DNA from: Planctomycetota bacterium
GTDB lineage: Bacteria; Planctomycetota; B15-G4
DNA: 64,000 bases
NCBI GenBank assembly: GCA_003644265.1
Contig: QNBX01000005.1
Coordinates: forward strand, 1-64,000
Direction of reading: 5' to 3'
Shown: piece by piece, positions 10,271-51,529 of the stretch
Position numbering within the stretch: position 1 is the stretch's first letter
How the letters are laid out: every line of letters starts with the position of its first letter
Notes under the pieces: generated by a model
What the model saw: the letters and a program-made list of their open reading frames with translations, nothing else
What the model was told of the DNA's origin: nothing
Databases searched by the model: none
Program-made: the position numbers and the translations under genes

Positions 10271-13200
10271 GACGCGGTCTCCGGCTCAGGCTTGACGGGG
10301 CGAGTGGCTGGCGCGGCCGCAGACATGCCGGTGGCCAGCTGCGCCGCCGTGCCCACTTCGGGCACGGTCATGCGCGAGAGCTGCTCGTACAGCGCGTGAC
10401 GCCTGTGCACGTCCTCCTGGGCGCGGCGTTGCAGCCGGGCGTAGCGCTGCGGGTCGAGCCGCTCCACCATGCGGAAGCGGGTCTCGTTGGCCATGAACGC
10501 CTTGACCGGTGTGCGCGGCGCCGGGCTGTCGAGCTGCAGCGGCGGCAGCCCCTTGCGCGCTCGCGCGGGGTCAAAGCGGTACAGCGGCCACACGCCCGAG
10601 CTCACGATCAGGCGCTGCTGCTCCACGTTGTGCGAGAGGTCGTAGCCATGGGCCACGCAGGGGCTGTAGGCGATGATCAGCGACGGCCCGCGGTGGGCCT
10701 CGGCCTCGCGCATGGCGGTCACGGTCTGGTTGGGCTTGGCGCCGAAGGCCACCCGCGCCACGTACACGTGGCCGTAGCTCATGGCCTCGAGCCCCAGGTC
10801 CTTCTTGGCCGTGGACTTGCCGGCCGTGGCGTACTTGGCCGCGGCTCCCAGCGGCGTGGCCTTGGAGGCCTGCCCGCCGGTGTTGCTGTAGACCTCGGTG
10901 TCGAGCACCAGCACGTTCACGTCGCGGTGGCTGGCCAGCACGTGGTCCAGGCCGCCGTAGCCGATGTCGTAGGCCCAGCCGTCGCCGCCGATGAGCCAGA
11001 TGGAGCGCGCCGACAGGTGCTCGGCCAGGCGCTCCAGGCGCCGGGCGTCGTCGCCCTGCATGCCCGCCAGACGCTGACGCAGCTGCTCGATCTGCTGGCG
11101 CCGTTGCTCGAGCTCGGCGCCCTCCGGTTCGCACAGGGACACAGCCAGCTCCAGGCCGATGTCGTCCGCCAGCCGGGTCACCAGCGCGCGCGCCTGCGCC
11201 GCCGCTTGATCCTCGGCCAGGCGCATGCCCAGCCCGAACTCGGCGTTGTCTTCGAACAGCGAGTTGGCCCAGGCCGGGCCGCGGCCGTCCGGGCCCGTGG
11301 TGTAGGGCGTAGTGGGCAGATTGCCTCCAAAGATGGAGGAGCAGCCCGTGGCGTTGGCGATCAGCATGCGCTCGCCGAAGAGCTGCGTGGCCAGCTTGAT
11401 GTAGGGCGTCTCGCCGCAACCGGCGCAGGCCCCACTGAACTCGAACAGCGGACGCCGCAGCTGGCTGGTGCGCGCGTCGGGCACGCCCTCCGGCAGCAAC
11501 CCCGTGAGCCCGTCGAAGAACGCGAAGCGCTCGGCCTCCTTGGCGACATGCTGCGCGTGGGGCTGCATGTCGATGGCCTTGTGGCGCGGATTGCTGCGGT
11601 CCTTGGCGGGGCAGACGTTGACGCACAGCGAGCAGCCGGTGCAGTCCTCGGGCGCCACCTGCACGCTGAAGCTGGCCTGCTCCAGGCCACCGATGCGACA
11701 GGCAGTGGTCGGGAAGTCCGCGGGGGCGTCGGCCAGCGCCGCCGGCTCGTAGGCCAGGGTGCGGATGGCGGCGTGGGGGCAGACCAGCGCGCACTGGTTG
11801 CACTGCACACACACCTCGGCATCCCAGATCGGGATCGACGCGGCGATGTTGCGCTTCTCGAAGCGGCTGGTGCCCGTGGGCCAGGTGCCGTCGGGCGCGA
11901 AGGCCGACACGGGCAGCTCGTCGCCGCGGCCCGCCAGCATGAGCCCGGTCACGGCCTGCACGAAGTCGGGCGCGTTGCTGGGCACGGCCGGGGGGCGATG
12001 GCGTGGCGAGTCGGCGCTCGCGGGCAGCGTCACCCGCTCCAGCCCCGCGCGGGCGGCGTCCACCGCGGCGTGGTTGCGCGCCACGATCAGCTCGCCACGC
12101 TTGCCGTAGCTCTTGGTGATGGCGTCCTTGATGGCCTTCAGCGCTTCCTCCACCGGCACCAGCTCGGCCAGGGCAAAGAAGCAGGTCTGCATGACGGTGT
12201 TGATGCGCCCGCCCAGGCCCTGCTCGCTCGCGACCATGTCGGCGTCCACCACCCACAGCACCAGCCGCCGGTCGAGGATCTCCTGCTGGGCCTCCTGCGG
12301 CAGGTGCGACCACAGCTCGTCGGCGGCATAGGGCGCGTTGAGCAGCAGCGTGGCGCCGTCGGCCGCGCGCGCCAGCACATCGTGCCGGTCGAGGAAGGCG
12401 AGCTGATGCACGCCCACGAAGTCCGCCAGGGCCACCAGGTACGGCGCGCGGATGGGCTGTTTTCCGAAGCGCAGGTGGCTCACGGTCATGGCCCCCGCCT
12501 TCTTGCTGTCGTAGACGAAGTAGCCCTGCACCGACAGGTCCGTGAGCTCGCCCAGGATCTTGATGGAGTTCTTGTTGGCGCCCACGGTGCCGTCCGAGCC
12601 CAGGCCGAAGAACACGGCGCCGCGCGTGCCCGCGGGCAGCACGTCGAGCGAGGGCTCGTAGTCGATGGAGCTGCCCGAGACGTCGTCGACGATGCCCACG
12701 GTGGCGTGGCGCCGGGGCGCCTCGCGGCAGAGCTCGTCGAACAGACCGGCCACCATGCCGGGCGTGAACTCCTTGCTGCCCAGGCCGTAGCGCGCACCGT
12801 ACACGTCGGGGCGCCCGGCGCTAGGCAGAGCCGCCGCGTCGGCTTCGGAGAGCGCGCAGACCACGTCCTGATAGAGGGGCTCGCCCGCCGCGCCGGGCTC
12901 CTTGGTGCGGTCCAGCACCGTGATCTGCCGCGTGCTGGCCGGCAACGCCGCCACCAGATCCTGCATGGGGAAGGGCCGGAACAGGCGCAGCGTGATCACG
13001 CCCACCTTGCGACCCTGCTCGGCCAGGCGCCGCGCGGTCTCGGAGGCCGTCACCGCGCCCGAGCCCATGGCCACCAGCACCTGCTCTGCCTGGGAGTGTC
13101 CGGCGTAGCTCACCAGCTCGTGCCGGCGCCCGGTGCGCTCGGCCAGGGTGTCGAGCGCCTCGCGCAGGTGGCCGCTGAGCGCCGCGTGGTATGGCGCGCC

Positions 13201-13896
13201 GGCCTCACGCGCCTGGAAGAACACGTCGGGGTTCTGGGCCGTGCCGCGCAGCACCGGCCGCTCGGGCGTGAGCCCGCGCTCGCGGTGCTGCTGCACCAGG
13301 CGCTCGTCCACCAGGGCGCGCAGGTCGTCGTCCGACAGCAGCTCGATGCGCTGCAGCTCGAGGCTGGTGCGGAAGCCGTCGAACACGTGCAGGATCGGCA
13401 CGCGCGCGGCCAGGGTCGCGGCGTGGGCCACGGCCGCCAGATCGTGGGCCTCCTGCACGTCGGTGGACACCAGCTGCGCGAAGCCGCTGGAGCGCACGGC
13501 CATCACGTCGCTGTGGTCGCCGAAGATCGACAGGGCGTGGGTGGCCACCGCGCGCGCCGCCACGTGCAGGCAGCAGGGCAGCAGCTCGCCGGCGATCTTG
13601 AGCATGTTGGGCAGCATCAGCAGCAGCCCCTGACTGGCAGTGAAGCTGGTGGTGAGCGCGCCGGCGGTGAGGCTGCCGTGCACCGCGCCCGCCGCGCCGC
13701 CCTCCGACTGCATCTCCACCACCTCGGGCACGGAGCCCCAGATGTTGGTGCGCCCGGCGGCGGCCCACATGTCGGCAAACTCGCCCATGGGAGAGCTGGG
13801 CGTGATGGGGTAGATGGCCACCACCTCGCTCAGCCGGAAGGCCACCGAAGCCGCCGCCTCGTTGCCGTCCAGCACCTTGACCTTGCGCGCTGTCAT
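10267..13896 (-). CDS. nifJ: Pyruvate:ferredoxin (flavodoxin) oxidoreductase
   Basis: A cytoplasmic enzyme oxidising pyruvate with CoA to acetyl-CoA and CO2 and reducing ferredoxin or flavodoxin. At about 1209 residues it has the full single-chain PFOR length. Visible in order: N-terminal pyruvate-binding region (DGNEAAASVAFRLSEV, YPITPSSPMGE), domain II (YGLGSKEFTPGM), two 4Fe-4S motifs (CVQCNQCALVCP near residue 695; CTGCSLCVNVCP near 752), the CAGCGETPY proximal-cluster region, and the TPP motif GGDGWAYDIG followed by DTEVYSNTGGQ. The ATG at 13896 has GGAG 6 nt upstream and matches the family N-terminus; starts at 13968 (ATG) or 13989 (GTG) remain possible. The stop overlaps the next gene. 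Confidence 0.95.
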   Translation of the reverse strand: MTARKVKVLDGNEAAASVAFRLSEVVAIYPITPSSPMGEFADMWAAAGRTNIWGSVPEVVEMQSEGGAAGAVHGSLTAGALTTSFTASQGLLLMLPNMLKIAGELLPCCLHVAARAVATHALSIFGDHSDVMAVRSSGFAQLVSTDVQEAHDLAAVAHAATLAARVPILHVFDGFRTSLELQRIELLSDDDLRALVDERLVQQHRERGLTPERPVLRGTAQNPDVFFQAREAGAPYHAALSGHLREALDTLAERTGRRHELVSYAGHSQAEQVLVAMGSGAVTASETARRLAEQGRKVGVITLRLFRPFPMQDLVAALPASTRQITVLDRTKEPGAAGEPLYQDVVCALSEADAAALPSAGRPDVYGARYGLGSKEFTPGMVAGLFDELCREAPRRHATVGIVDDVSGSSIDYEPSLDVLPAGTRGAVFFGLGSDGTVGANKNSIKILGELTDLSVQGYFVYDSKKAGAMTVSHLRFGKQPIRAPYLVALADFVGVHQLAFLDRHDVLARAADGATLLLNAPYAADELWSHLPQEAQQEILDRRLVLWVVDADMVASEQGLGGRINTVMQTCFFALAELVPVEEALKAIKDAITKSYGKRGELIVARNHAAVDAARAGLERVTLPASADSPRHRPPAVPSNAPDFVQAVTGLMLAGRGDELPVSAFAPDGTWPTGTSRFEKRNIAASIPIWDAEVCVQCNQCALVCPHAAIRTLAYEPAALADAPADFPTTACRIGGLEQASFSVQVAPEDCTGCSLCVNVCPAKDRSNPRHKAIDMQPHAQHVAKEAERFAFFDGLTGLLPEGVPDARTSQLRRPLFEFSGACAGCGETPYIKLATQLFGERMLIANATGCSSIFGGNLPTTPYTTGPDGRGPAWANSLFEDNAEFGLGMRLAEDQAAAQARALVTRLADDIGLELAVSLCEPEGAELEQRRQQIEQLRQRLAGMQGDDARRLERLAEHLSARSIWLIGGDGWAYDIGYGGLDHVLASHRDVNVLVLDTEVYSNTGGQASKATPLGAAAKYATAGKSTAKKDLGLEAMSYGHVYVARVAFGAKPNQTVTAMREAEAHRGPSLIIAYSPCVAHGYDLSHNVEQQRLIVSSGVWPLYRFDPARARKGLPPLQLDSPAPRTPVKAFMANETRFRMVERLDPQRYARLQRRAQEDVHRRHALYEQLSRMTVPEVGTAAQLATGMSAAAPATRPVKPEPETAS

Positions 13897-14214
13897 GGAC
13901 ATCTCCAGGGCTCGGGTGCCCGTCACCAGGGCCGCGAGCGGCTCGTTCTCGTGAGTCGAGTGATCCATCAGAATATCAACTCTCCCCACGCTCCGCTCTG
14001 AGGCTAGCAGTCGGCGGCCGTACGGATCCGCTGTGGCAGAGGTTCTCTTGCTGACAGGGTCGCTCCACGCTGTCGGCGAGCTACACCAGTGCCCATGCGA
14101 ACCCTCGTCCTGTTGACCTCCGCGGCCCTGCCACCGGCGCGGCCCACCACGAGCTGCGCGCGGCCTTCAGCGCCCTGATCGAAAAGCTGCTGGCCGAGGA
14201 GAGCTGAGGCACCC
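13897..14214. other. Gene-poor stretch upstream of nifJ
   Basis: This 318-base stretch holds the nifJ leader and upstream region, including a possible -10 hexamer TAGCCT (minus strand) in the region about 14000-14020, and a decayed gene remnant at 14095-14207 on the plus strand. I see no RNA gene, repeat or strong hairpin in it. Confidence 0.5.
14095..14207 (+). pseudogene. Possible gene remnant (signal-like start plus out-of-frame C-terminal end)
   Basis: An ATG at 14095 opens a short frame beginning MRTLVLLTSAALPPA, which looks like the start of a signal peptide or flavodoxin-type strand but ends after 27 codons. In a different frame the same stretch ends AHHELRAAFSALIEKLLAEES and TGA at 14205-14207, a helical sequence resembling a natural protein C-terminus. 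The combination suggests an internally deleted and frameshifted gene. The parental family cannot be named. Support is weak, as high-GC DNA gives such frames by chance. Confidence 0.25.
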
Positions 14215-22760: not shown

Positions 22761-23567
22761 CTAGCGTACGGAGCTCATGACCACGCGGCCGTTGAGCGGC
22801 ATGACCGGGCGGTTGTTGCGCCCCAAGATGGACGCGATCTTGCGCAGCACGCGCGGCGTGACCCGAAGCCTCTCGCGCAGCACGATCCAGGTCACGCCCT
22901 CGGTGCAGGGCGGCGTGGTGAATGAGCCGGCGTACTGCCAGTAGCTGCGGTCGTCCGGGAAGAGCTCGAGCGGGTCGCGCCAATGAAGCAGGTCAGCCTC
23001 GTCGCCGGCGTGCAGCGGCAGGTCATCCACGTCCAGCTCCAGCTCCTCGTGAGCATCGCCGGCGCTGACGAGCACGGCCACCACCAGCACGCGGCCGCTG
23101 GCGTCGCGATGCACGTAGTGCATCTCAGCCGGCGCGTGCAGACCGTCGATGGTGTGCTCGCTCGGCGTGTGCAGGTGGTACTGCATCAGGTCGTAGCGCA
23201 GACCGCCAAAGAGCAGGTGGTTGTCCTCGTTCTCCGAGTGCTCGAGCGTGTGGCCGTCATTCACCCAGTGGGCGTTGGTGGCGTGGTAGCGCAGATCGAG
23301 GCTGGGCAACACGCCGCCCGGCGCGTCGGCCGGCACGATGTCGACGGGAGACTGCTCGCGGCCCTCGTCCGCCAGGCGGTAGTCGAGCGAGAGGCTGCCC
23401 CAGTGCTCCGGGCCGATCTCGCCCTCATAGCCCCAGTCGTGCTCGTGCTCGTCGGCCGAGAAGTACCAGTGGCCGTCCGCGGCGCAGCCCGCGCCGGCCA
23501 ACATCACGACCAGGCCCAGCGCCAGGGAGCTGGCCCGGGCTCGCAGCGCGGAGTAGCAAGCCTGCAT
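22761..23567 (-). CDS. Alpha-type carbonic anhydrase, lipoprotein
   Basis: Hydrates CO2 to bicarbonate in the periplasm or at the cell surface. 268 residues with a lipoprotein signal (VMLAGAGC, lipid-attachment Cys28). Zinc ligands H131 and H133 lie in QYHLHTPSEH, and H150 in APAEMHYVH; the substrate-pocket Thr region appears as SFTTPPCTEGV. These are the classical alpha-CA signatures. The start at 23567 has GGGAG 8 nt upstream. A His/Asp/Glu-rich stretch follows the lipobox. It ends 27 nt before the secreted repeat-protein gene, so the two may be cotranscribed. Confidence 0.93.
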   Translation of the reverse strand: MQACYSALRARASSLALGLVVMLAGAGCAADGHWYFSADEHEHDWGYEGEIGPEHWGSLSLDYRLADEGREQSPVDIVPADAPGGVLPSLDLRYHATNAHWVNDGHTLEHSENEDNHLLFGGLRYDLMQYHLHTPSEHTIDGLHAPAEMHYVHRDASGRVLVVAVLVSAGDAHEELELDVDDLPLHAGDEADLLHWRDPLELFPDDRSYWQYAGSFTTPPCTEGVTWIVLRERLRVTPRVLRKIASILGRNNRPVMPLNGRVVMSSVR

Positions 23568-23808
23568 CTCGAGGTCTCCCACGGGTGTGTCGGTTGTGAG
23601 CCGGTGCGCAGGGCGGTGCGGACCTCGCTCCGGAGGGTTCATGGCACCGATCTGCCGCGCCCCGGTCAAGGCCGGGCCTGCCCTCGCCGGTGCCCGCGCT
23701 GCTACGGTAGCCGGGCCCGCAGCTGGCGGCGCCGGCCTGCAGCTCGACCACGGGCAGCCTTGGCGCGCGCCCGCGCAACACCCATCTACAGCCCACGCCG
23801 AGGTTCCC

Positions 23809-25116
23809 GTGCGCACGCTCCTGCCCATCGCCCTCGCAGCACTCACGCAGCTCGCCTGCGCCACGACGGGCCAGTCGCCGCCCGTGGCGTTCACCGGCGC
23901 GCACCTGATCCCCGTGTCCGGTCCCGAGCTCGACGACGGCGTGCTCGTCGTGCAGGACGGGCGCATCCTGGCCGTGGGCGGACCGCGCACGGCCATCCCG
24001 GACGGCGCGCGCGTCATCGACGTGTCGGGCAAGGTCATCATGCCGGGGCTGGTCGACACACACAGCCACATCGGCGAGCCCTGGGGCGGCGACCAGAGCG
24101 GCCCCCTGCACCCTGACGCGCGCGCGCTCGACGCCATCAACGTGCGCCACCCATCCATCCAGCGCGCCCAGGCCGGCGGCGTCACCATCGCCAACCTCAT
24201 GCCCGGGTCGGGGCACCTCATGAGCGGTCAGACGGCGTATCTCAAGCTGCGCGACGGCCGCACCCTGGACGACCTGCTGCTGCGCGATGAGAGCGGCCGG
24301 GCCCTGGGCGGCATGAAGATGGCCAACGGCACCAACAGCCAGGATGATCCGCCCTTCCCCGGCACGCGCAGCAAGTCGGCGGCGCTGGTGCGCGAGCTGT
24401 TCAACCGGGCCCTGGCCTATCGCGCCAAGCAGCAGCGCGCCGGCGACGACCCCGACCAGGCGCCTGACCCCGACCTGGGTCTGGAGGCCGTGCTGGAGGT
24501 GCTCGACGGACGCCGCGTGGTGCACCACCACACCCACCGGCACGACGACATCATGACCGTGCTGCGCCTGCGCGAGGAGTTCGGCTTCCGATTGGTGCTG
24601 CAACACGCCTCGGAGGCCTGGCGCGTGGCCGACGAGATCGCCGCGGCCGGCGTGCCCTGCTCGGTGATCCTGATCGACTCCCCCGGCGGCAAGCTGGAGG
24701 CGCTGGACATGAGCTGGCAGACGGCCGGCATCCTGGAGCGCGCCGGCGTGGCCGTGGCCATGCACACCGACGACGCCATCAACGACAGCCGCCTGTTCCT
24801 GCGCTCGGCGGCCATGGCCCATCGCGCCGGCCTCTCGCGCGCGGGCGCCCTGGCGTCGGTCACCCTGGCGGGCGCGGCCATGCTCGATTTAGAGCAGCGC
24901 ACCGGCTCCCTGGAGGTGGGCAAGGACGCCGACTTCATCGTGCTCAGCGCCGACCCGCTGAGCGTCTACGCCCTCATCGAACAGACCTGGATCGACAGCG
25001 TCCAGGTCTTCGATCTCTCCGACCCGACCGACCGGCTCTGGGCCACGGGCGGCTGGGGCGCCAACGACGGCCCCGACAGCCCGGCCTTCCTCTGCTGCTA
25101 CGGGAGCGCACGCTGA
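23809..25116 (+). CDS. Amidohydrolase (imidazolonepropionase-like), lipoprotein, metal site intact
   Basis: 435 residues from the GTG at 23809 (GAGG 5 nt upstream), with a lipoprotein-like signal (LTQLACATTG). It is a typical composite amidohydrolase: N-terminal beta-sandwich (DDGVLVVQDGRILAVGG), barrel opening with PGLVDTHSHIG (HxH metal ligands), then HHHTHRHDD, LVLQHASE and VAMHTDD supplying further His and the catalytic Asp, and a C-terminal SLEVGKDADFIVLSADPL. Expected to hydrolyse a cyclic amide, imide or peptide-like substrate outside the cytoplasm. The stop overlaps the next paralogous gene as TGATG; a DASS transporter follows, suggesting a catabolic unit. Confidence 0.88.
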   Translation: MRTLLPIALAALTQLACATTGQSPPVAFTGAHLIPVSGPELDDGVLVVQDGRILAVGGPRTAIPDGARVIDVSGKVIMPGLVDTHSHIGEPWGGDQSGPLHPDARALDAINVRHPSIQRAQAGGVTIANLMPGSGHLMSGQTAYLKLRDGRTLDDLLLRDESGRALGGMKMANGTNSQDDPPFPGTRSKSAALVRELFNRALAYRAKQQRAGDDPDQAPDPDLGLEAVLEVLDGRRVVHHHTHRHDDIMTVLRLREEFGFRLVLQHASEAWRVADEIAAAGVPCSVILIDSPGGKLEALDMSWQTAGILERAGVAVAMHTDDAINDSRLFLRSAAMAHRAGLSRAGALASVTLAGAAMLDLEQRTGSLEVGKDADFIVLSADPLSVYALIEQTWIDSVQVFDLSDPTDRLWATGGWGANDGPDSPAFLCCYGSAR

Positions 25117-33639: not shown

Positions 33640-35895
33640 ATGGACGAGCTGCTGCCATTTACCGACGAGCCCCCCCAGGGGGACGGGCCTGCCCGGGTCA
33701 GGCTGCTGGGCACGCTGGCCTCGATCACCTTCCGAAACGACGACAACGGCTGGACCGTCGCGCGCCTCGAGACGGACGAGAGCGGCGAGCGCGTCACGCT
33801 CGTGGGCGCCATGCCCGGCGTCGAGGAGGGCGACAGCGTGGCCGTGGAGGGCCGCTGGACCCAGCACCCCAACTTCGGGCGCCAGCTCAGCGTGGAGACC
33901 TGCCGGGTGCAGCTTCCCAGCGGGCGCAAGGGCGTGGTGCGCTTCCTGGGTGGCGGGCGCATCAAAGGCGTGGGGCCCGCCACGGCCGACAAGATCGTGG
34001 ACGCCCTGGGGCTGGACGTGCTGTCGCGCCTGGAGCGCAACCCCGAGCTGCTGCACACCGTCCCCGGCATCGGACGGGCCAAGGCCGGCGCCATCCTGGA
34101 ACAGCTCGCCGAGCAGCGCGATTCGTCTGATGCGCTCGTATTCCTGGCCGACCTGGGCCTCGGGCCGGCGCTCTCCCTGCGCGTCTGGCGCCTTTACAAG
34201 ACCGACACCGTGGCCATGGTGCGCACCGATCCCTTCCGTTTGGCGGAGGAGGTCCCCGGCGTCGGCTTCCGCACCGCCGACAACCTGGCGCGCGAGCTGG
34301 GTCATGAGCCCGACTCCGCCTATCGCGTCGCCGCCGGGTTGCTGCACCTCTTGTCGCAGGCCGCGCTCGAAGGCCACGTGGGCTTGCCGTCCGAGGAGCT
34401 GCTGGAGCGCAGCGCCGCCTTCCTCGAGGTGAACGAGCAGCGCGTCGAGCAGGTCTTCGTGGAGACGCTCGAGGCCGGACGCCTGACCGAGGACGAGCTG
34501 GTCTACCGCCCTGAGCTGCTGGCCGCCGAGCGCGACGTGGCCGCGGCCGCCGCACGGCTGCTCACCCGCGGCCGCCCGCCCACCGACCTAGCCCCCGCCG
34601 CCGCCGTAGCCCGCGCCAGCTCACGCCTGGGCTTCGAGCTGGCCGACGATCAGCGCGCGGCGCTCGAGCTGGCCATCGCGGCGCCGCTGTCGGTCATCAC
34701 CGGCGGTCCGGGCGTGGGCAAGACCACCCTGGTGCGCGCCGTGGTCGAGGTGCTGGAGGAGCAGGGCTGCCGCCTGGCTCTGGCCGCCCCCACCGGCCGC
34801 GCCGCCCGACGCCTGGCCCAGGCCACCGGGCGCGACGCCGCCACCCTGCACCGCCTGCTGGGCCTGCGCCCCAGCGGCGACTTCACGCCGTTCATGCCGC
34901 AGGAGCAGCTCGACGCCGACGTGCTGGTGATCGACGAGGTCTCCATGGTGGACGTGACGCTCATGGCCGTGACCCTGGCGGCCCTGCCCGAGACCTGCGC
35001 CGTGGTGCTGGTAGGCGACGTCGATCAGCTGCCGTCCGTGGGGCCGGGCGACGTGCTGGCGGCGTTCGCCCGCAGCGGCGTGGTGCCGGTGGCGCGGCTC
35101 ACGACCGTCTTCCGCCAGGCCGAGGGCAGCGGCATCGTGCGCGTGGCCCACGACTGGAACGCCGGCCGGGCGCCCGAGTTCGACGTGGGCGACAGCGGCC
35201 AGGCCTACTGGATCGAGCGCCGCGACGCCGCCAGCGCGCTGCAGACCCTGCTCACCATGGCCACCGAGCGCATCCCCCAGCGCTTCAGCCTCGACCCCCT
35301 GCGCGACGTGCAGGTGCTGACGCCCATGCACAAGGGCCCCCTGGGCACCGTGGCGCTCAACGAGGCCCTGCGCGCCCGGCTCAACCCGCCTGGCAAGCAG
35401 AAGGCCGAGCTGCAGCGCTTCGGCCGCACCCTGCGCGAGGGCGACAAGGTCATGCAGGTCAAGAACAACTACGACCTCGACGTGTTCAACGGCGACGTGG
35501 GCGTGCTCACCTCCATCGACGAGGACGCAAGCCAAGCTTGCGTCGACTTCGAGGGTCGCCACGTGACCTACGGCCTCGACCAGCTCGACCAGCTCGAGCC
35601 TGCCTTCGCAATCACCTGTCACAAGAGCCAGGGAAGTGAGTTCCCTGCGGTGGTGCTGCCGCTGGTCATGGGCCAGCGCATGATGCTGCGCCGCAACCTG
35701 GTCTACACCGCCTTCACCCGCGCCAAGCAGGTGTTGGTGGCCCTGGGCGAGACCGCGGCCCTGCAGCGCGCGCTGTCCACGGTCGACACGGGCACGCGCC
35801 ACGGACGCCTGGCCCAGCGGCTGGCGGCGGCGGCCGGCGTCGAACAGGACGGGCCGGATGGTGTGGTCGACCCGGCGTCGGAGGGCTTGGCGTGA
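33640..35895 (+). CDS. recD2: RecD2-type ATP-dependent DNA helicase (SF1B, 5'-3')
   Basis: 751 residues, the usual size for RecD2 acting without RecBC. An N-terminal OB-like region (ARVRLLGTLASITFRND) is followed by helix-hairpin-helix segments (RIKGVGPATADKIV, TVPGIGRAKAGAIL, EVPGVGFRTADNLA), Walker A GGPGVGKTT (about 355-363), Walker B VLVIDEVSMVD (about 428-438), GDVDQLPSVGPGDVL (motif III), TTVFRQAE (motif IV region), AITCHKSQGSEFPAVVLP (motif V) and LVYTAFTRAK (motif VI). Acts in DNA repair and replication-fork processing. It is followed by cutC on the same strand. Confidence 0.92.
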   Translation: MDELLPFTDEPPQGDGPARVRLLGTLASITFRNDDNGWTVARLETDESGERVTLVGAMPGVEEGDSVAVEGRWTQHPNFGRQLSVETCRVQLPSGRKGVVRFLGGGRIKGVGPATADKIVDALGLDVLSRLERNPELLHTVPGIGRAKAGAILEQLAEQRDSSDALVFLADLGLGPALSLRVWRLYKTDTVAMVRTDPFRLAEEVPGVGFRTADNLARELGHEPDSAYRVAAGLLHLLSQAALEGHVGLPSEELLERSAAFLEVNEQRVEQVFVETLEAGRLTEDELVYRPELLAAERDVAAAAARLLTRGRPPTDLAPAAAVARASSRLGFELADDQRAALELAIAAPLSVITGGPGVGKTTLVRAVVEVLEEQGCRLALAAPTGRAARRLAQATGRDAATLHRLLGLRPSGDFTPFMPQEQLDADVLVIDEVSMVDVTLMAVTLAALPETCAVVLVGDVDQLPSVGPGDVLAAFARSGVVPVARLTTVFRQAEGSGIVRVAHDWNAGRAPEFDVGDSGQAYWIERRDAASALQTLLTMATERIPQRFSLDPLRDVQVLTPMHKGPLGTVALNEALRARLNPPGKQKAELQRFGRTLREGDKVMQVKNNYDLDVFNGDVGVLTSIDEDASQACVDFEGRHVTYGLDQLDQLEPAFAITCHKSQGSEFPAVVLPLVMGQRMMLRRNLVYTAFTRAKQVLVALGETAALQRALSTVDTGTRHGRLAQRLAAAAGVEQDGPDGVVDPASEGLA
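35523..35543. repeat. Perfect 8-bp inverted repeat inside recD2
   Basis: GACGCAAG, 5-nt spacer CCAAG, CTTGCGTC. It lies in codons for the EDASQACVDFEG segment near residue 630. It may be a chance or coding-neutral hairpin. Confidence 0.5.
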
Positions 35896-36760: not shown

Positions 36761-36840
36761 CGCTCGCCCCCGCTCGCCCCCGCTCGCCCCCGCTCGCCCC
36801 CGCTCAGCAGCGCTCAGCAGCGCTCAGCGGCGCTCAGCGG
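36761..36840. repeat. Short tandem repeat, 10-bp unit, eight copies
   Basis: Four copies of CGCTCGCCCC, then CGCTCAGCAG twice and CGCTCAGCGG twice, exactly 80 bp. It lies between the convergent ends of cutC and the MauG-like gene and contains the stop codon of the latter (TGA at 36834-36836 on the minus strand). Each CGCTCAGC unit can supply a TGA on that strand. Confidence 0.9.
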
Positions 36841-38249
36841 CGCTTGACGCTCCCCTGCGGCAGGTACGGCGTCGCCGGCGCCACGGTCAGCTCCTGCGGC
36901 AGCTGCTCGTCCGTCAGCGCGCGCAGGAACGCCAGCAGGTCGGCCTGCTCGCCCGCGCTCAGGTGCAGCGGCTGCAGGATCTTCTCGTCGTGCATGCCGG
37001 GCGGCGCGGCGCCCTCGAGGCTCGAGTAGAAGGCGATGACTTGCTCCAGCGTGGCCAGCTGGCCCTCGTGCATGTACGGCGCGGTCACGGCCACGTTGCG
37101 CAGCGAGGGCGTCTTGAACACGCCCGGCAGCTCCCAGCCCACGCGCGGGAACGAGAGCTTGGTGCGCGCCAGCAGCCCGCCGTCGTCCGCGTGCTCTGAG
37201 CTGCCGTTGAAGGGATCCTCCAGCAGGCGCACGATGCCGAGCGCGCGGCCGGGGTCGACGCCCTCGCCGGTGGGCACGCGGTTGGCGTGGAACTCGCGGT
37301 CGCTGAAGAGCGGGCCGTCGTGGCACAGCAGGCAGCGCGCCTTGCCGGCGAACAGCGCGAAGCCCCGCTGGGCGGAGGGCGAGATGGCGGCCAGCGAGCG
37401 CTCGTCCCCCGTGCGCAGACCCTCGACGAACACGTCGAAGGGTGCGCGATCCGAGCTGATGCGACGCTCGAACGCGGCGATGGCCTTGCCCACGTTGACG
37501 AAGACCTGGTCGACCAGCCGCTGGTCGGCGGCGTCCATGGAGGCCCAGGCGCGCGCGTGCTCGTGGCCCTCGTCGCCGGGCACCGGGCGCCCGCGGGGCG
37601 GGAAGCGCGCGCTGTCGCTCAGGTCGGGTAGCGCGCCGAAGACGTCAGCGTAGGCCCGGGCGTAGCCGCGGTCCGACGCCAGGCTGTGCGCGATCTGCAG
37701 CCGGCTGGCCGCGTGCTCGCGTGGGTCCTCCAGCGGCGCCAGCGCCTGGGACCAGAGCGAGTCCTTGCGCCCGTCCCAGAAGAACCAGCGGTTGTGGGCC
37801 ACGTTCCAGAGGGTCATGGAGTGGCGCGGGTGCTGCGCCACGCCCTGGGCCAGCTTGCGGCCGTCGCCCCAGCCGAGTTCGGGCTGGTGGCAGCTGGCGC
37901 AACTGATCTCGCCCGGGCCGGAGAGGCGTTGATCGAAGAACAAGGCCTGACCCAGGCGCGCGGCGGCGGCGTCATCGGCCACGGCGTTGGTGGGGTCGGG
38001 CGGCGGCGCGGGCAGGGGCGAGAACTCGAGCGCCAGGGAGATCTCGGCGGGGGTCAGCACCAGGGCCGACGCGCTCGCGTCGCCACCGCCGTGATCGTCG
38101 TTCTGCGCGGGAACTGCTGCCAGCGCAGCGCCGGCCCCAGGCGCAGCCCCCGCGTCCCGCGAGACGCTCGCGCCCAGCGCACAGGCGGCGGCCAGCAAGA
38201 CCGTCAGCGCTGATCGGCACGGCGCGCCCCACCTGAGCCCGGCCGCCAT
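36834..38249 (-). CDS. Di-haem cytochrome c peroxidase, CcpA/MauG family
   Basis: 471 residues with a signal peptide. Two c-type haem motifs: CASCH at 117-121 and CLLCH near 306. Other family segments are LGQALFFDQRLSGPGEISC, GDGRKLAQG, NVAHNRWFFWDGRKDSLWSQA, FKTPSLRNVAVTAPYMHEGQL (distal Met/His loop) and FLRALTD near the C-terminus. Periplasmic, reduces H2O2 or oxidises a protein cofactor. Starts with TGATG overlapping the preceding lipoprotein gene, so it is the third gene of a coupled operon. The stop codon lies inside a 10-bp repeat array. Confidence 0.9.
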   Translation of the reverse strand: MAAGLRWGAPCRSALTVLLAAACALGASVSRDAGAAPGAGAALAAVPAQNDDHGGGDASASALVLTPAEISLALEFSPLPAPPPDPTNAVADDAAAARLGQALFFDQRLSGPGEISCASCHQPELGWGDGRKLAQGVAQHPRHSMTLWNVAHNRWFFWDGRKDSLWSQALAPLEDPREHAASRLQIAHSLASDRGYARAYADVFGALPDLSDSARFPPRGRPVPGDEGHEHARAWASMDAADQRLVDQVFVNVGKAIAAFERRISSDRAPFDVFVEGLRTGDERSLAAISPSAQRGFALFAGKARCLLCHDGPLFSDREFHANRVPTGEGVDPGRALGIVRLLEDPFNGSSEHADDGGLLARTKLSFPRVGWELPGVFKTPSLRNVAVTAPYMHEGQLATLEQVIAFYSSLEGAAPPGMHDEKILQPLHLSAGEQADLLAFLRALTDEQLPQELTVAPATPYLPQGSVKRR

Positions 38250-38755
38250 CAGACGTTCAGCTCGAAGCGCACGCTGTCGCTGGCCGTGCTGTCCGTCACG
38301 TCGAAGACGAGCACCCAGAGGCCGCGCATGTGCAGCAGCATGGCGTCCACGCGGTAGCGCCCGTGGCCCAGCTCCGTCACCACGGGCGCGCGCACCAGGC
38401 CGTGGCCGTGCGCGGGCATGGAGGCTCGCAGCACCAGCCGCGGCCCGCCGTGGGGTCGGCCCTCGCGCAGCAGCAGCACCTCTAGGGAGAAGTCCTGGTT
38501 GCGCGGGACCACGCCGCCCACGGGACGCCACGCCAGCTGGTAGCGGCCCGCGTCGCCGCTGGCCACGAACCAGTCGCTCAGGTCGGGCAGCGCGGCGCCG
38601 CTGGCCCCATCGACGGCCACGCCCGCCTCGCCCGGCGCCGCGGCCGAGCGGCAGGCGCACACTGACGCCAGCAGCAGCGCCGCGAGGGCGAGCCCCCGCG
38701 AGCTCCACCCGCGGCTCATGACCTGATCGACGGGCTCAGCACACGCGCGCGTCAT
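38249..38755 (-). CDS. Small lipoprotein/exported beta-sandwich protein (FixH/YtkA-like)
   Basis: About 168 residues. A hydrophobic signal ends SVCAC/RSAA, giving a possible lipobox. The mature region has the pattern YQLAWRPVGGVVPRNQDFSLEVLLL, then MPAHGHGLV and HGRYRVDAMLLHMRGLWVLVFDV, resembling the immunoglobulin-like FixH/YtkA domain with its MPxHxHG motif, possibly a metal-binding site. ATG 38755 overlaps the upstream stop as TGATG; ATG 38719 would give a more standard signal peptide. It sits between the choice-of-anchor-B and MauG-like genes, an association suggesting a shared envelope redox or metal function. Confidence 0.72.
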   Translation of the reverse strand: MTRACAEPVDQVMSRGWSSRGLALAALLLASVCACRSAAAPGEAGVAVDGASGAALPDLSDWFVASGDAGRYQLAWRPVGGVVPRNQDFSLEVLLLREGRPHGGPRLVLRASMPAHGHGLVRAPVVTELGHGRYRVDAMLLHMRGLWVLVFDVTDSTASDSVRFELNV

Positions 38756-44252: not shown

Positions 44253-47093
44253 CTACTCGCCGACGCGCCCCCGGGCCGGGCCGTCCACCGCGTAGCAGCT
44301 GCCGGGGAACACGGGCGCCCCCGCGCCAGCAGCGTCGCCGGCGCCGGCAGCACCCGCCGGCAGCTTGCGCACCTCGGCGGCGCAGACCTTGAACTCGGCG
44401 GTCTGGGTCACAGGGTCACCCTCGTCGTTGGTGAGCAGGTTGGCGCGGGCCTCGGCGAAGTGCAGCGGCATCCAGAGGCAGCCCTTGCGCACCTGGCGCG
44501 AGACGTGCGCGCGCACGGTGATGGCGCCGCGGCGGGTGGACACCTCGACCAGCTCACCTTCGGCGATGCCGCGCTGGCCGGCGTCCTTGGGGTGGATCTC
44601 CACGAAGGCCTCGCCCTGCTTGGCCACCAGGCCCTGCTCGCGGCGCGTCTGGGTGGCTGCGTTGTAGTGGTAGAGCGTGCGCCCGGTGCTGAGCAGCAGG
44701 GCGTACTGCTCGCAGGCCTGCTCCAGCGGCGGGCGGTAGCTGACGGCCTGAAACAGGCCCTTGCCGCGCAGCACGCCGCCTTCGTGCAAGAAGCCCGTGC
44801 CGGGGTGCTCAGGCGTGGGGCAGGGCCACTGCAGGCCGCTCATGCCTTCGTGCAGCTCGGTGTCCACGCGCGCGTGGCTGATGCCGGCGAATTTGGGCGT
44901 GTCGCGCACGAACTCGTCGTAGACCTCGGACGCGCTGTCGAAGTGCCAGTCGGCGCCGGACGCGTTGGCCAGGGCGATCAGGATCTGCCAGTCGGCGCGG
45001 GCGCCGGTCGGCGGCTCCACGGCCTTGCGCACGCGCTGCACGCGGCGCTCGGAGTTGGTGAAGGTGCCCTCCTTCTCGGCAAACACGGCGCTGGGCAAGA
45101 CCACGTCGGCAAAGCGCGCGGTCTCGTTCAGGAACGGCTCCTGGATCACCAGGAACTCCACGTCGTTCATGCGCTGCTCGAGCGCCGCCACGTTGGGCTC
45201 CGACAGCAGGATGTCCTCGCCCATGACGTACATGCCGCGGATCTGGCTGCCCACGGCCTTCATCATCACGTTCAGGTTCATGCCGGGGTTGGGGTCGAGC
45301 TTCACGCCCCAGCTGGCCTCGTACTTGGCGCGGGCCTCATCATCGTCCACGCGCTGGTAGCCCGGCAGGTAGATCGGCGTGGCGCCGGCGTCGTTGGCGC
45401 CCTGCACGTTGTTCTGGCCGCGCAGGGGGTTCATGCCCGACGAGGGCTTGCCCAGGTGTCCGGTCATGAGCACCAGGTTGGCCAGGGCGTACACGTTGTC
45501 CGTGCCGTGGCTGTGCTCGGTGATGCCCAGGGTGTAGTAGATGCCGGCGCGCTCGGTGGTGGCGTACTTGCGCGCGGTCCAGCGGATGTCCTCGGCGCTA
45601 ACGCCGGTGATCTCCTCGGCCGCCTCGGGCGAGTAGCTCTTGACCGCCTCGCGCACGGCCTCGAAGCCCTCGGTGTGATCGCGGATGAAGGCCTCGTCGC
45701 ACAGGCCCTCCTCGATGATCGTGTGGGCCATGGCGTTGAGCAGCCACACGTCCGCGCCCAGCTTCAGGCGCAGGTGCTTCTCGGCCATGGTCGTCATCCA
45801 GATGGCGCGCGGGTCGGCCACGACCATGCTGGCGCCGCGCTTGACCGCGCGCTTCATCTCCATGGCGATGATCGGGTGGGCCTCCGACGTGTTGGAGCCG
45901 ATCACGAACAGGAAGTCCGCGTCGCGGATCTCCCCGATCGAGTTCGTCATCGCGCCGGCGCCGAAGGTGGTGACCAGACCGGCCACCGTTGGAGCGTGTC
46001 AGGTGGCCGCGCATTGATGCACGTTGTTCGTTCGGAACACCGCGCGCGACAGCTTCTGCACCAGGTAGTTCTCCTCCATGGTGCAGCGGCTGCTGCTCAC
46101 GAAGCCCAGGGCGTCGTGGCCGTGACGCTCGCTCACGCCCGCCAGGCCCTCGGCCGTGCGGGCCAGGGCGTCCTCCCAGCTGGTCTCGTGCAGCTCGCCA
46201 TCGTCGCCGCGCACCAGGGGCGACGTGAGCCGATCCTCGTGGTGGATGAACTCGTAGGCAAAGCGGCCCTTCACGCACAGGTTGCCGTCGTTGGTGGTGC
46301 TGCCCGGGTCGGGGCTGGTGACCTTGACCACGCGCCCGCGGCCATCGTTGCCGTCGGGGTCGACGTTCAGGTCGAGCTGGCAGCCCACGCCGCAGTAGTT
46401 GCAGGTGGAGCGCACCTTGGTCAGCTCGCGCTCGGGCAGCGCGCCCGCCAGCAGCGGACCCTTCTCGCCCATGGCGCCCGTGGGGCAGGTGTCGATACAG
46501 CCGCCGCACATCTCGCAGGTTGTGTCCAGCAGCGAGAGCTGATCGACGGTGCTGATGGTGGTCTCGATGCCGCGCCCGGCCAGGGTGATGGCGGAGACGG
46601 CCTCGACCTCGTCGCAGTAGCGCACGCAGCGCGCGCAGGCGATGCAGGTGTCGGGGTCAAAGTGGATGAACGCGTTGCGGTCGTCCGGGCGACCCGCGCG
46701 GCGCGCCGGCACGCGGCCCCAGTCGGTGGGCGCCTCGTAGCGCGCCACCATGTCCAGCAGCTGGTTGGGCGCGCCCTTCTCCGCCTCCTCGCGCTCGGCC
46801 GGATGGTCGGTCATGTAGAGCGACAGCAGCGTCTTGCGGTGGCGAGTGATGCGCTCGCTCTCGGCGCTGACCTCGCTGCCGGCGCTGGCCTTGGTGGCGC
46901 AGGCGGGCACCAGCCGGCGCTGGCCCGAGACCTCCACCAGGCAGGTGCGACAGGCGCCGGCGGGCTTGAGCCGCGGGTCGTGGCACAGGGTGGGGATGTG
47001 TACGCCCTCGCGCCGCGCCACCTCCAGGATCGTCTCGCCAGGTGCGAAGCTGACCTCGCGACCCTCCAGCGTGAGCGTGGTGCGAGCGATCAT
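44253..47093 (-). CDS. fdhA: Selenocysteine-containing NAD-linked formate dehydrogenase, alpha (molybdenum/tungsten) subunit
   Basis: Oxidises formate to CO2, or the reverse. 946 residues when the in-frame TGA at 45999-46001 is read as Sec365. Order: 2Fe-2S ferredoxin domain (C37, C48, C51, C65), two 4Fe-4S motifs (C150/153/156/160 and C193/196/199/203), a further 4Fe-4S (C231, C234, C238, C273) and the bis-MGD catalytic domain. The active site reads NNVHQCAAT-Sec-HAPTVAGL, aligning with the CARV-Sec-HGPSVAGL site of E. coli FdhF. Sequence on both sides of the TGA is intact and in one frame, and a SECIS-like hairpin follows. AGGAG lies 9 nt before the ATG at 47093. The N-terminal domain is that of NAD-dependent soluble enzymes. 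The diaphorase partner is at 49727-51529. Confidence 0.9.
45969..46001 (-). promoter_or_regulatory. Bacterial SECIS element with Sec UGA codon
   Basis: On the minus strand TGA (46001-45999) is followed after 11 nt by GGTGGCCGGTCTGGTCACC (45987-45969). This folds as a 7-bp stem, GGUGGCC pairing with GGUCACC with one G-U pair, around a GGUCU loop. The apical GGUCU and its distance from UGA match the E. coli fdhF SECIS, which binds SelB. It lies within coding sequence (HAPTVAGLVTT). Confidence 0.85.
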
Positions 47094-47227
47094 GGGCGGC
47101 GGCTCCTGTGAATTGCAGCGACGGGAGCCGGCCGTTGCGCGCATGCATCACGCCGGCCCCGGGAGGGCTGAGCATTGTAGGCCAACTCGGCCCGTGGCTC
47201 GATGGCCCTGCGCGCCGCGGCGCGGGA

Positions 47228-48124
47228 TCAAACGTCGTGGCGCTCGTGATACGGCACCTCGCGTGCGGCTTGGCGCAGCCGCGCCAGGCGCGCCACGTAG
47301 CCATCCACGGAGTGATTGGCCGTGTCCAGGCTGGCAGGCAGCTCGGTGATCAGCATGACATCGGGGTCGAGCAGGATCTGCCGGGACTCCAGGTAGCTGT
47401 AGATCGCATCGGTCCAGAGCAGGATCTCCGGGCCCACGTGGGCGTAGAGCAGCACGTCGTCGTCCGGGATGTAGGGCGGCATGTCGGCCACGGGGTCGCC
47501 CCGATACACGACCCGGTCCACGCGCAGGCCGGTACCGCCGTTGGTGAGTTGCAGGGCCCCGTCCAGGGTGGTCACCTTGGGCTGGCCAAAGGTGACGGCC
47601 TGCACCTCGTAGCCGGCTTGATCCAGGTACAGGCCCGCCACCACGGCCAAGGCCCCTCCCATGGAGTGCCCCGTGAGCACCACCGGCTGATCGGCGTCCA
47701 GCTCCGCCAAGAGCACGAAGCCCAGCTGCTGTCCGACCCGCAGGAAGCCCTCGTGCATGTCGATCTCGATGAATTCGGCACGCTCCAGGTCCACCACCGC
47801 GTCCACCGCCAGATTGGGCAAGGAGGACGTGCCACGAATGGAGACGACCTGGCGTCCGCCCTCGTTCGTCACGTGGTAGCGCACATCGCTCAACGGCAGG
47901 ACGCCGTGTTGCACGCTCGCGCCGAAGCGCGCCTCGATCTCGGCCTCGCTTTGATAGGCCAGCTGGGAGTGCTCGGCCAGCGTGTGCAGCTCGTCGAAGT
48001 CGACCGGGTGGTTCGTCTGGGTCGGCGGCGGCACGAAGGCGTCGCCCAGCGACGCGCAGGCACCCAACAGGCTCGAGACCAGCAGCGCCAACGAGACGTA
48101 CGACAACGGACGGACGGACAGCAT
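47228..48124 (-). CDS. Lipase class 3-like lipoprotein (alpha/beta hydrolase)
   Basis: 298 residues with a lipoprotein signal (VSSLLGAC, Cys23). The nucleophile elbow is TGHSMGGAL with Ser154, preceded by QVVSIRGTSS (oxyanion strand) and followed by VTFGQPKV and YRGDPVADMPP, where Asp in GDPV is the expected acid; a His appears in YAHVGPE. This pattern matches fungal-type (class 3) lipases. It acts at the envelope on lipids or esters. GGGAGG lies 6 nt before the ATG. It lies 134 nt downstream of the fdhA start on the same strand and is divergent from the MscS gene. Confidence 0.87.
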   Translation of the reverse strand: MLSVRPLSYVSLALLVSSLLGACASLGDAFVPPPTQTNHPVDFDELHTLAEHSQLAYQSEAEIEARFGASVQHGVLPLSDVRYHVTNEGGRQVVSIRGTSSLPNLAVDAVVDLERAEFIEIDMHEGFLRVGQQLGFVLLAELDADQPVVLTGHSMGGALAVVAGLYLDQAGYEVQAVTFGQPKVTTLDGALQLTNGGTGLRVDRVVYRGDPVADMPPYIPDDDVLLYAHVGPEILLWTDAIYSYLESRQILLDPDVMLITELPASLDTANHSVDGYVARLARLRQAAREVPYHERHDV

Positions 48125-48377
48125 GCTTGGCCTCCCCCTCTTGTGCTCTGGTTCACGCCGCGCGTGCACTGATGCAGATCACGGTGAGACATCCCCTGCG
48201 CGGCTCTCGGATGGTGCGCTTCCTCACGGGGGCGGTCAAATGCACCGCCCTTGATGGCGCCGCCCTGCGCGGCCTCGCCCTGCACCTGGTCTGCAGGTAC
48301 GCTGACCCCGTCGTGACCAGCGCCCCCCACGAGCAACGCCGCCGAGCGAGCAGCCCCTCGGGGCTGGCGGGTCGCCT

Positions 48378-49726
<1,349 letters not shown>

Positions 49727-49730
<4 letters not shown>

Positions 49731-51529
49731 CCGACCGCGAACTCGTCCCCGAAGTGCTTCAGCGCCGTGGTCAGCGGCAGGCTCGCGGCCTGGCCCAGCC
49801 CGCAGATGGAGCCCTCGTTCATCTGCCAGGCGGCGTCGGCCACCTTGTCGAGCGGCTTGGGATGGTCCTTGCCGTTGCCGCCGGTCGCGCCGCCCGTGGC
49901 AGCGCCCGCTGAACTCGCGCTGACGCTGCCGCTCGCGCCTCCAGCATGCGCGTCGCTCGCCGCGGACCGATGGCGCTTCAGCATCGTGTGCAGATAGAAC
50001 GTGCCGATGCGGCAGGGCGCGCACTGGCCGCAGCTCTCGTCCTCGAAGAACTTGAGCTGCTGCTCCACGGCCCAGGGCATGGAGACGCTGTCGTTGAGCA
50101 CGACCACGCCCGACGAGCCGAGCATGGAACCCACGCCGCCCAGGGTCTTGAAGTCGAGCGGGATGGCGCGCATGTCGGCCGGCAAGAAGCCGCTGCTGGC
50201 GCCGCCGGGCGAGAAGGCCTTGAGCGTGCCGACGTAGCCGCCGGCCGCGGCCACCAGCTCGTCGAGGGTCACGCCGAGGGGCAGCTCGTAGGTGCCGGGG
50301 CGCACGACGTGGCCGCTCACGCAGTAGAGCTTGGTGCCCGCCTCGGCGCGCCCGAGCGCAGCGAACCACGGCCCGCCGCGCTCCACGATGGAGGGCACGC
50401 AGGCGATGGTCTCCACGTTGTGCATCAGCGTGGGCATGCCCCAGAGGCCGTTCTCGACGGGGAAGGGAGGCTTGAGCCGCGGCATGCCGCGCTTGCCCTC
50501 CAGCGCCTCGATCAGCGCGGTCTCCTCGCCGCAGATGTAGGCGCCCTGGCCGGCGTGCATGTGAAAGCGCACGCCCGGGAAGCGATCGCTGGCCTCGGCG
50601 TCGGCGATCTCGCGCGCGATCACATCCCAGGGCACGCCGAACTCGCCGCGCAGATAGAGGTAGACGTCCGCGGCGCCGGTGGCCGCGGCCGCGATGGCCA
50701 GCCCCTCCAGCACGCGGTCGGGGCGGCGCATGAGCAGCTCGCGGTCCTTGAAGGTGCCGGGCTCGCCCTCGTCGCCATTGAGCACCACGTAGCGGCGCGT
50801 CTCGGGCTGGCCGTGCACCGCGCGCCACTTGATGTGCGCGGGGAAGCCGGCGCCGCCACGGCCCTGCAGGCCCGAGGTCTCGAGCTGCTCGAAGAGCGCC
50901 TCGGGGCCCAGCTGCTGCGCCTGGCGGAAGGCGGCGCCGCTGCGATCGGGCGCGCCATACAGGTTCAGGGCCAGCTGCTCGGGGTCGTCGCGCTCGGGGC
51001 CGACGTGGCCGCGCCACTCGACGGCGGGCGCGGTGGACTCGCTGGTCGGTCCGGCGTCGGCGGCGGAAGCGTCGGCCGCCGAGTTGCCGCCCGCGCCCCC
51101 CGGCGTCATGCCCTGCGCTGCCTCGGACTCCAGCTGCTCCCACTGTCCGTCGGCGCGCTGTACGTCCTGCACCGTCAGCTTCGGCAGCACGCGGCGCTCG
51201 CGCAGCACGGCGGGCGGCACGTCGCATCCGGCCAGGCACGACACGCCCTCGCAGGGCATGCCCGCGTCCTGCGCCGCCGCCAGCACGTCGTCGGCGCCCG
51301 CCAGCCGGCACGACAGCCCGGTGCACACGCGCACCTTCTGCTGAGGGCGCGACAGCAGGTGGTAGAAGCTGGCCACGCCGTACACCTCGGCCTCCGGCAC
51401 GCCCGTGTCCCGGGCCACCTGCCGCGCCACGCCCGCGTCGATGCCGCCGAGCTGCTCCAGACGCTCGTGGACCTCGGCGCGGCGCGCGTCGCCCTCGCTG
51501 GGAGCCGGGTGATGCTGGTCGGGGGTCAT
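49727..51529 (-). CDS. NuoE-NuoF fusion: diaphorase subunit of NAD-dependent formate dehydrogenase
   Basis: 600 residues. The N-terminal about 130 residues are NuoE/FdsG-like thioredoxin-fold 2Fe-2S (C69, C74, C98, C102; VYGVASFYHLLS). A Gly/Ala/Ser linker (about 140-165) joins a NuoF/FdsB domain: FMN/NADH-binding GRGGAGFPAHIKW, NGDEGEPGTFKDR, GAYICGEETALIEALEGKRG, and 4Fe-4S ESCGQCAPCRIGT with the fourth Cys in SICGLGQ. An Ala/Gly/Ser insertion of about 35 residues separates the last two. Transfers electrons from formate dehydrogenase to NAD+. It starts with ATGA overlapping the upstream hydrolase stop. It is separated from fdhA by a lipase and a channel gene. Confidence 0.87.

What the first reader, a model, noticed from the sequence alone, without database searches (positions are those of the whole stretch)
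44253..47093. In-frame TGA in formate dehydrogenase is a selenocysteine codon with a visible SECIS element
The TGA at 45999-46001 falls exactly at the catalytic Sec/Cys position (QCAAT-Sec-HAPTVAGL). The frame is intact on both sides for 364 and about 580 codons. It is followed after 11 nt by a 7-bp hairpin with the GGUCU loop that SelB recognises in E. coli fdhF. Automated callers would split this into two genes or call it a pseudogene. If the host is a planctomycete-like bacterium, Sec use there would also be worth recording.
Basis: partly seen in the sequence, partly recalled or inferred. Interest (0 to 1): 0.82.

Follow-up and report, generated by a model that had tools for sequence, protein, structure and literature searches.

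The report
Selenocysteine formate dehydrogenase in a planctomycete
A stop-looking codon in the middle of a formate-oxidising enzyme gene is almost certainly read as the rare amino acid selenocysteine; the case is solid, but this is a well-known use of selenocysteine and the same gene family has been reported before in related bacteria.

Summary
Confirmed, and ordinary. The minus-strand gene 47093..44253 encodes a formate dehydrogenase alpha subunit (TIGR01591, over cut-off) with an in-frame TGA at 45999-46001 at the catalytic Sec/Cys position, QCAAT-U-HAPTVAGL. Eleven nt downstream starts a 7-bp hairpin with a GGUCU loop that meets the published bacterial SECIS model. The TGA is kept in 50 of 50 relatives from genome contigs that reach the site. 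The hairpin shows synonymous compensatory changes (one pair is G-C in 35 and C-G in 12 of 48 distinct sequences). selA, selB and tRNA-Sec are over cut-off in 33 of 33 relatives' genomes searched, selD in 20 of 20. Of 120 protein hits listed, the 89 longer than 650 residues all have cysteine there. The protein database holds a C-terminal piece of the window gene.

The window's own genome is not held, so its sel genes could not be tested. The fdhA-nuoEF selenoprotein family, in a planctomycete and the myxobacterium Plesiocystis, with horizontal transfer, was described in 2016 (PMC4807772). New member of a known kind. Side findings: a Cys relative with a SECIS-like hairpin, a planctomycete subclade with a shifted hairpin, and a split fdhA/nuoEF pair here.

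The parts
44253..47093 (-). fdhA: formate dehydrogenase alpha subunit, selenoprotein; ATG at 47093, 364 codons, TGA, 581 codons, TAG stop
   Evidence: translate with TGA=U; stop codon; TIGR01591 774.6 bits against cut-off 666.25; Pfam Molybdopterin, Molydop_binding, Molybdop_Fe4S4, Fer2_4, Fer4_Nqo3
45999..46001 (-). TGA read as selenocysteine (codon 365 from the ATG at 47093; residue 382 of P0001, which starts at 47144)
   Evidence: TGA at the same place in 50 of 50 relatives that reach the site
45969..45987 (-). bSECIS hairpin: 7-bp stem (45987-45981 with 45975-45969), loop GGUCU at 45980-45976, starting 11 nt after the TGA
49727..51529 (-). NuoE-NuoF fusion (FMN/NAD-binding diaphorase partner), upstream of fdhA and parted from it by two other genes
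   Evidence: Pfam Complex1_51K, 2Fe-2S_thioredx, SLBB, NADH_4Fe-4S; next to fdhA in 39 of the 41 relatives that show it (51 loci examined)
47228..48169 (-). class 3 lipase gene lying between nuoEF and fdhA; not part of the enzyme
   Evidence: Pfam Lipase_3; no match at E 1e-5 in the loci searched
48378..49730 (+). MscS-type mechanosensitive channel gene lying between nuoEF and fdhA on the other strand; not part of the enzyme
   Evidence: Pfam MS_channel_2nd and MS_channel_3rd; no match at E 1e-5 in the loci searched

Best explanation
The gene makes a soluble NAD-linked molybdenum (or tungsten) formate dehydrogenase alpha subunit whose metal ligand is selenocysteine. During translation a SelB-type factor carrying Sec-tRNA binds the GGUCU-loop hairpin just downstream of the UGA and inserts Sec there instead of letting the chain end. 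The alpha subunit has a NuoG-like N-terminal iron-sulfur arm, which passes electrons from formate to the NuoEF-type FMN/NAD subunit encoded 2.6 kb upstream. Shown here: the gene, the TGA, the hairpin, their conservation and covariation, the partner gene, and sel genes in relatives. Inferred: that this organism has the sel genes, that the chain is made full length, which metal is bound, and the reaction and its direction.
For: Both halves are 72-78% identical to the five closest planctomycete loci L001-L005. TGA in 50 of 50 relatives that reach the site, found with search peptides that do not include it. The hairpin meets the bSECIS limits quoted in PMC13188914 (passage): loop 3-9 nt, stem 4-16 bp, G in the first two loop positions, 16-37 nt from UGA to loop (18 here), energy at most -7.5 kcal/mol (-10.7 for the hairpin alone). 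Loop GGTCT in 48 of 51 rows. Covariation: 22 cells changed on both sides against a shuffled mean of 11.1, covariation score 0.220 against 0.112, each reached by 0 of 500 shuffles; sliding the partner gives 0.007-0.116. The main switch is a pair of synonymous third-base changes in two valine codons. selB, tRNA-Sec and selA over cut-off in 20 of 20 genomes and in 13 of 13 more; selD in 20 of 20. All 89 listed homologues over 650 residues have Cys there, and the two PDB alignments shown have Cys there. TGA serves as the stop of 19 of 27 family-supported or neighbouring genes of the window, so it is not recoded everywhere.
Against: The window's own genome is not held, and the window has no tRNA gene or Rfam match, so Sec machinery in this organism is unproven. 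The 45-nt fold is no better than shuffles. On the alignment the number of further pair types is not above shuffles (8 against 8.1), pairs changed on both sides only slightly (3 against 2.0, reached by 11 of 500), and kinship of the rows inflates the shuffle control; the two outermost stem pairs are unpaired in 27 and 10 of 48 distinct rows. Some selB matches over cut-off cover the N-terminal part of the model only (for example 2-259 of 581). No expression or mass-spectrometry data. FdhD and molybdenum-cofactor genes were not looked for.
Confidence: 0.96

Rival explanations
1. The TGA is a real stop or a sequencing error in a cysteine enzyme: the gene is a broken or mis-sequenced fdhA.
For: Cys homologues exist, including in planctomycetes (P0004 and L082); the own genome could not be checked for sel genes.
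Against: TGA at the same codon in 50 of 50 relatives that reach the site, from assemblies labelled with several phyla; both halves conserved alike; covarying hairpin in register.
Confidence: 0.02
2. The organism reads TGA as a plain amino acid throughout (a recoded genome), so the site is not selenocysteine.
For: None found.
Against: TGA is the stop codon of 19 of 27 genes examined in the window, RecD2 and the pyruvate:ferredoxin oxidoreductase among them; relatives carry tRNA-Sec and SelB.
Confidence: 0.002
3. Two products are made on purpose: the 364-residue N-terminal piece when selenium is short, and the full enzyme when selenium is present.
For: The N-terminal piece holds the whole NuoG-like iron-sulfur arm and the Fe4S4 domain; some termination at Sec UGA is usual in known systems (recalled).
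Against: The break falls inside the molybdopterin domain (residues 305-727 of P0001), not at a domain border; nothing here shows a use for the piece.
Confidence: 0.018

Closest known systems
fdhA-nuoEF selenoprotein operon of planctomycete P1 and Plesiocystis pacifica SIR-1 (PMC4807772, selenoprotein section read)
   Same: Sec-FDH alpha subunit with NuoEF partner. The Plesiocystis pacifica SIR-1 locus L028 is in our set: 58% (N part) and 67% (C part) identical, TGA at the same codon with the C-G form of the hairpin, nuoEF next to fdhA. The authors infer horizontal transfer with planctomycetes.
   Different: In the window nuoEF and fdhA are 2.6 kb apart with two unrelated genes between. The paper found the operon in P1 and Plesiocystis only; here 50 TGA loci were found.
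FDH alpha subunits of PDB 6tg9 (Rhodobacter capsulatus FdsA, organism recalled) and 9wxb
   Same: Same architecture over residues 20-927, 721-729 bits.
   Different: Cysteine at the metal-ligand position; no UGA.
E. coli formate dehydrogenase H, FdhF (PDB 1aa6)
   Same: Sec-FDH catalytic part, matched at residues 242-928; GGUCU in its SECIS loop (recalled; one search did not show it).
   Different: No NuoG-like N-terminal arm (match covers the catalytic part only); works with a hydrogenase, not NAD (recalled).

Membership tests
Formate dehydrogenase alpha subunit (TIGR01591) | Score over NCBI's curated cut-off | tested here: met
   774.6 bits, cut-off 666.25, profile 2-672 of 672
Formate dehydrogenase-N alpha subunit (TIGR01553) | Score over NCBI's curated cut-off | tested here: not met
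   273.2 bits, cut-off 814.2: not the membrane-bound FDH-N type
Formate dehydrogenase alpha subunit (TIGR01591) | Sec or Cys followed by His at the metal site (UHxP) | tested here: met
   U-H-A-P; motif as tabulated for Sec-FDH in PMC13188914 (passage)
Bacterial selenoprotein gene | In-frame TGA with conserved coding sequence on both sides | tested here: met
Bacterial selenoprotein gene | bSECIS: loop 3-9 nt, stem 4-16 bp, G in loop positions 1-2, UGA-loop 16-37 nt, energy at most -7.5 kcal/mol | tested here: met
   5 nt, 7 bp, GG, 18 nt, -10.7 kcal/mol for the hairpin alone (limits)
Bacterial selenoprotein gene | selA, selB, selC, selD in the same genome | not testable with these tools
   own genome not held; in relatives selA, selB, selC 33 of 33, selD 20 of 20 over cut-off
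NAD-linked soluble FDH (FdsABG type) | NuoG-like arm on alpha and a NuoE/NuoF-type partner gene | tested here: met
   Fer2_4 and Fer4_Nqo3 on FdhA; NuoEF fusion at 49727-51529
NAD-linked soluble FDH (FdsABG type) | NAD-dependent formate oxidation or CO2 reduction | not testable with these tools
   needs an enzyme assay

The most novel reading that the evidence does not exclude
The fdhA-nuoEF enzyme is a selenocysteine-keeping gene that passes between Sec-decoding bacteria of several phyla (labels Planctomycetota, Myxococcota, Latescibacterota, Calditrichota, Acidobacteriota, Verrucomicrobiota are mixed in the tree; the Gemmatimonadota label of L010 sits among Latescibacterota on a very short branch and may be a wrong bin), holds on to its UGA and hairpin through synonymous compensation, and is now and then turned to cysteine, at times leaving the SECIS hairpin behind (L082). 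Transfer between phyla was not tested formally here.
Probability: 0.35. Interest if true: 0.3.

Novelty: new member of a known kind. Interest (0 to 1): 0.15.

Why it matters
It corrects a gene of which the protein database holds a piece, and adds a clear case to what PMC13188914 calls the most widely distributed selenoprotein family in bacteria (passage). The related loci give a clean record of compensatory synonymous change in a coding-region RNA hairpin, and of Cys forms inside a Sec clade, a direction that the same paper calls rare and mostly limited to FdhA and SelD.

Tried and rejected
Own-genome search for tRNA-Sec failed because no genome is held; relatives' genomes were searched instead. 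Rfam at gathering thresholds and ARAGORN found nothing in the window. Fold stability alone was rejected as evidence. The minus-strand frame 48153-49472 between nuoEF and fdhA matches no family; the plus-strand frame 48378-49730 is an MscS channel and is the likelier gene. General recoding of TGA was rejected from the stop codons of 27 genes. PMC3834832 was searched for the E. coli fdhF loop and held none of the terms, so the E. coli comparison stays recalled. A paper search for fossil SECIS with bacteria gave 3 papers (listing only): on Tetrahymena, on viral infection and on insects. The tRNA-Sec model also scores other tRNAs near its cut-off (control over cut-off in 5 of 14 genomes), so only the top match of each genome, 61-80 bits, is taken as tRNA-Sec; the controls over cut-off were 2 of 14 for selB, 1 of 14 for selA and 2 of 14 for selD. 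Left out of the tree: L051 (does not reach the site); L068, L069, L072, L076, L086 (same genomes as L001, L002, L004, L023, L043); and 69 of the 89 Cys proteins over 650 residues (20 used).

Full report
Observation. The minus-strand frame 47093..44253 has one in-frame TGA at 45999-46001 and is otherwise open for 364 codons before it and 581 after it, ending in TAG. The joined protein is a formate dehydrogenase alpha subunit: TIGR01591 at 774.6 bits against a cut-off of 666.25, with molybdopterin, molybdopterin-dinucleotide and Fe4S4 domains and a NuoG-like N-terminal arm. In the two PDB alignments shown, cysteine aligns with the TGA residue. Eleven nucleotides after the TGA a 7-bp hairpin with loop GGUCU begins.

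Is it more than chance? The fold energy of the 45-nt stretch is not unusual (z -0.74, 43 of 200 shuffles as good), and I do not lean on it. The position is: among 127,880 positions of the window on both strands, only this one has seven of seven pairs and a GGTCT loop at this offset, and synonymous recodings of the same peptide with the gene's own codon usage give both in 1711 of 200,000 trials. Against the bSECIS limits quoted in PMC13188914 (passages) the hairpin passes every point: loop 5 nt, stem 7 bp, G in the first loop positions, 18 nt from UGA to loop, -10.7 kcal/mol.

Relatives. A scan of genome contigs with the protein returned 51 loci; the six search peptides (YMTDHPAE and others) do not touch the TGA site, so the scan was blind to it, though it reaches close relatives only (44-78% identity). 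In 50 of 50 loci that reach the site the codon is TGA; L051 does not reach it. On the alignment of 51 sequences (48 distinct, window included), the pair of columns 18 and 30 is G-C in 35 and C-G in 12, through paired synonymous third-base changes in two valine codons. The covariation score is 0.220 against a shuffled mean of 0.112, reached by 0 of 500 shuffles, and 0.007 to 0.116 when the partner is slid. Against it: the number of further pair types equals that of shuffles (8 against 8.1), pairs changed on both sides are 3 against 2.0 (reached by 11 of 500), and kinship of the rows inflates the shuffle control, as the tool warns. The outermost two pairs are less kept (27 and 10 of 48 not paired), so the conserved core is five pairs plus the loop. 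The loop is GGTCT in 48 of 51 rows, GGGCT in 2 and GGACT in 1.

Machinery. No genome is held for the window. Of the 51 related loci I searched the genomes of 20: selB, tRNA-Sec, selA and selD were over cut-off in 20 of 20. In 13 further genomes met in the phylum scan, tRNA-Sec, selA and selB were over cut-off in 13 of 13 (selD was not searched there). In 14 of the 20 genomes the best selD match itself carries one TGA, as Sec-containing SelD does. The selB model also matches other proteins below its cut-off; some matches over cut-off cover its N-terminal part only.

Cysteine forms. A protein search scored the 8000 candidates that share most words and listed 120; the first is the window's own C-terminal piece of 577 residues on a contig of 83,634 bases, so the database holds the gene cut near the TGA. 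Of the 120, the 89 longer than 650 residues all have Cys at the site; the other 31 do not reach it. In a phylum scan, 168 of 294 genomes matched at 1e-100; loci were returned for the best 30 matches, of which 29 have TGA and one (L082) TGC at the site; the other matches were not checked codon by codon. In a quick tree of 96 rows (75 Sec, 21 Cys; SH-aLRT support, midpoint root for drawing only, 21 of 92 inner branches open), the label needs 5 changes and well-supported branches force at least 3. Two Cys groups (P0003 and P0004 with L082; P0005 and P0006) lie inside a clade of 71 Sec and 5 Cys rows; the other 16 Cys rows lie with 4 Sec rows on the other side. The window groups with Planctomycetota L002 (support 97).

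Mechanism. Most likely SelB with Sec-tRNA binds the hairpin and inserts Sec at the UGA; Sec then binds Mo or W at the active site, and electrons go through the N-terminal iron-sulfur arm to the NuoEF partner and NAD. The partner gene lies at 49727-51529. Of 51 loci, 41 show nuoEF; it lies within about 250 nt of fdhA in 39 of them, L034 and L044 being exceptions; 10 loci show none, some because they are short. In the window the two are 2.6 kb apart, with a lipase gene and an opposite-strand MscS gene between them, so fdhA probably has a promoter of its own (inference).

Known or new. FdhA is called the most widely distributed selenoprotein family in bacteria (PMC13188914, passage). A Sec-FDH in a planctomycete in an operon with nuoEF, shared with Plesiocystis pacifica and with inferred horizontal transfer, is in PMC4807772 (selenoprotein section read). 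The 2006 survey PMC1794560 (passages) lists 103 Sec FdhA with 7 Sec-to-Cys events. The window gene is a new member of this known kind.

Host. The window has 71.5% G+C. Of the 7 organism-named RecD2 (33640-35895) hits at 60% identity or more, 6 are Planctomycetota and 1 is labelled Pseudohongiellaceae. A planctomycete is likely but not proven. TGA ends 19 of 27 genes examined in the window, so it is an ordinary stop elsewhere.

Noticed in passing
L082 (genome G075), site of the Sec codon: A planctomycete relative has TGC in place of TGA yet keeps a 7-bp hairpin with a GGUCU loop in the same register, in a genome that still has selA, selB and tRNA-Sec: a possible SECIS left over after a Sec-to-Cys change. 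The fold is no better than shuffles (z -0.52), and peptide constraint could account for part of it.
   Followed up: partly
L087-L092, just after the TGA: In six planctomycete loci (peptide U-HFPTEQALVKSFG) the usual hairpin is absent by eye. In the three of six that I folded (L087, L088, L090) a 7-bp stem with loop CGUGA or GGUCA sits 5 nt further downstream; folds are no better than shuffles. Their six genomes have selA, selB and tRNA-Sec over cut-off.
   Followed up: partly
window 47228-49730: A lipase gene and an opposite-strand MscS channel gene part nuoEF from fdhA, which are neighbours in 39 of the 41 relatives that show nuoEF.
   Followed up: partly
genomes G001-G020, selD: The best selD match carries one in-frame TGA in 14 of 20 genomes, so SelD is itself probably a selenoprotein there.
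   Followed up: no
window 22761-24221 and 36834-38708: A eukaryotic-type carbonic anhydrase domain and a MauG-type di-haem peroxidase domain are encoded in the window.
   Followed up: no
window 10267-13989: A single-chain pyruvate:ferredoxin/flavodoxin oxidoreductase, which would fit an organism that handles low-potential electrons (inference).
   Followed up: no
P0007 and P0148: Two database proteins named Pseudohongiellaceae match window genes at 78% and 60%; they may come from a wrongly named planctomycete bin.
   Followed up: no
L010: A locus labelled Gemmatimonadota sits among Latescibacterota on a branch of 0.013 in the fdhA tree: either a recent transfer or a wrong bin.
   Followed up: no
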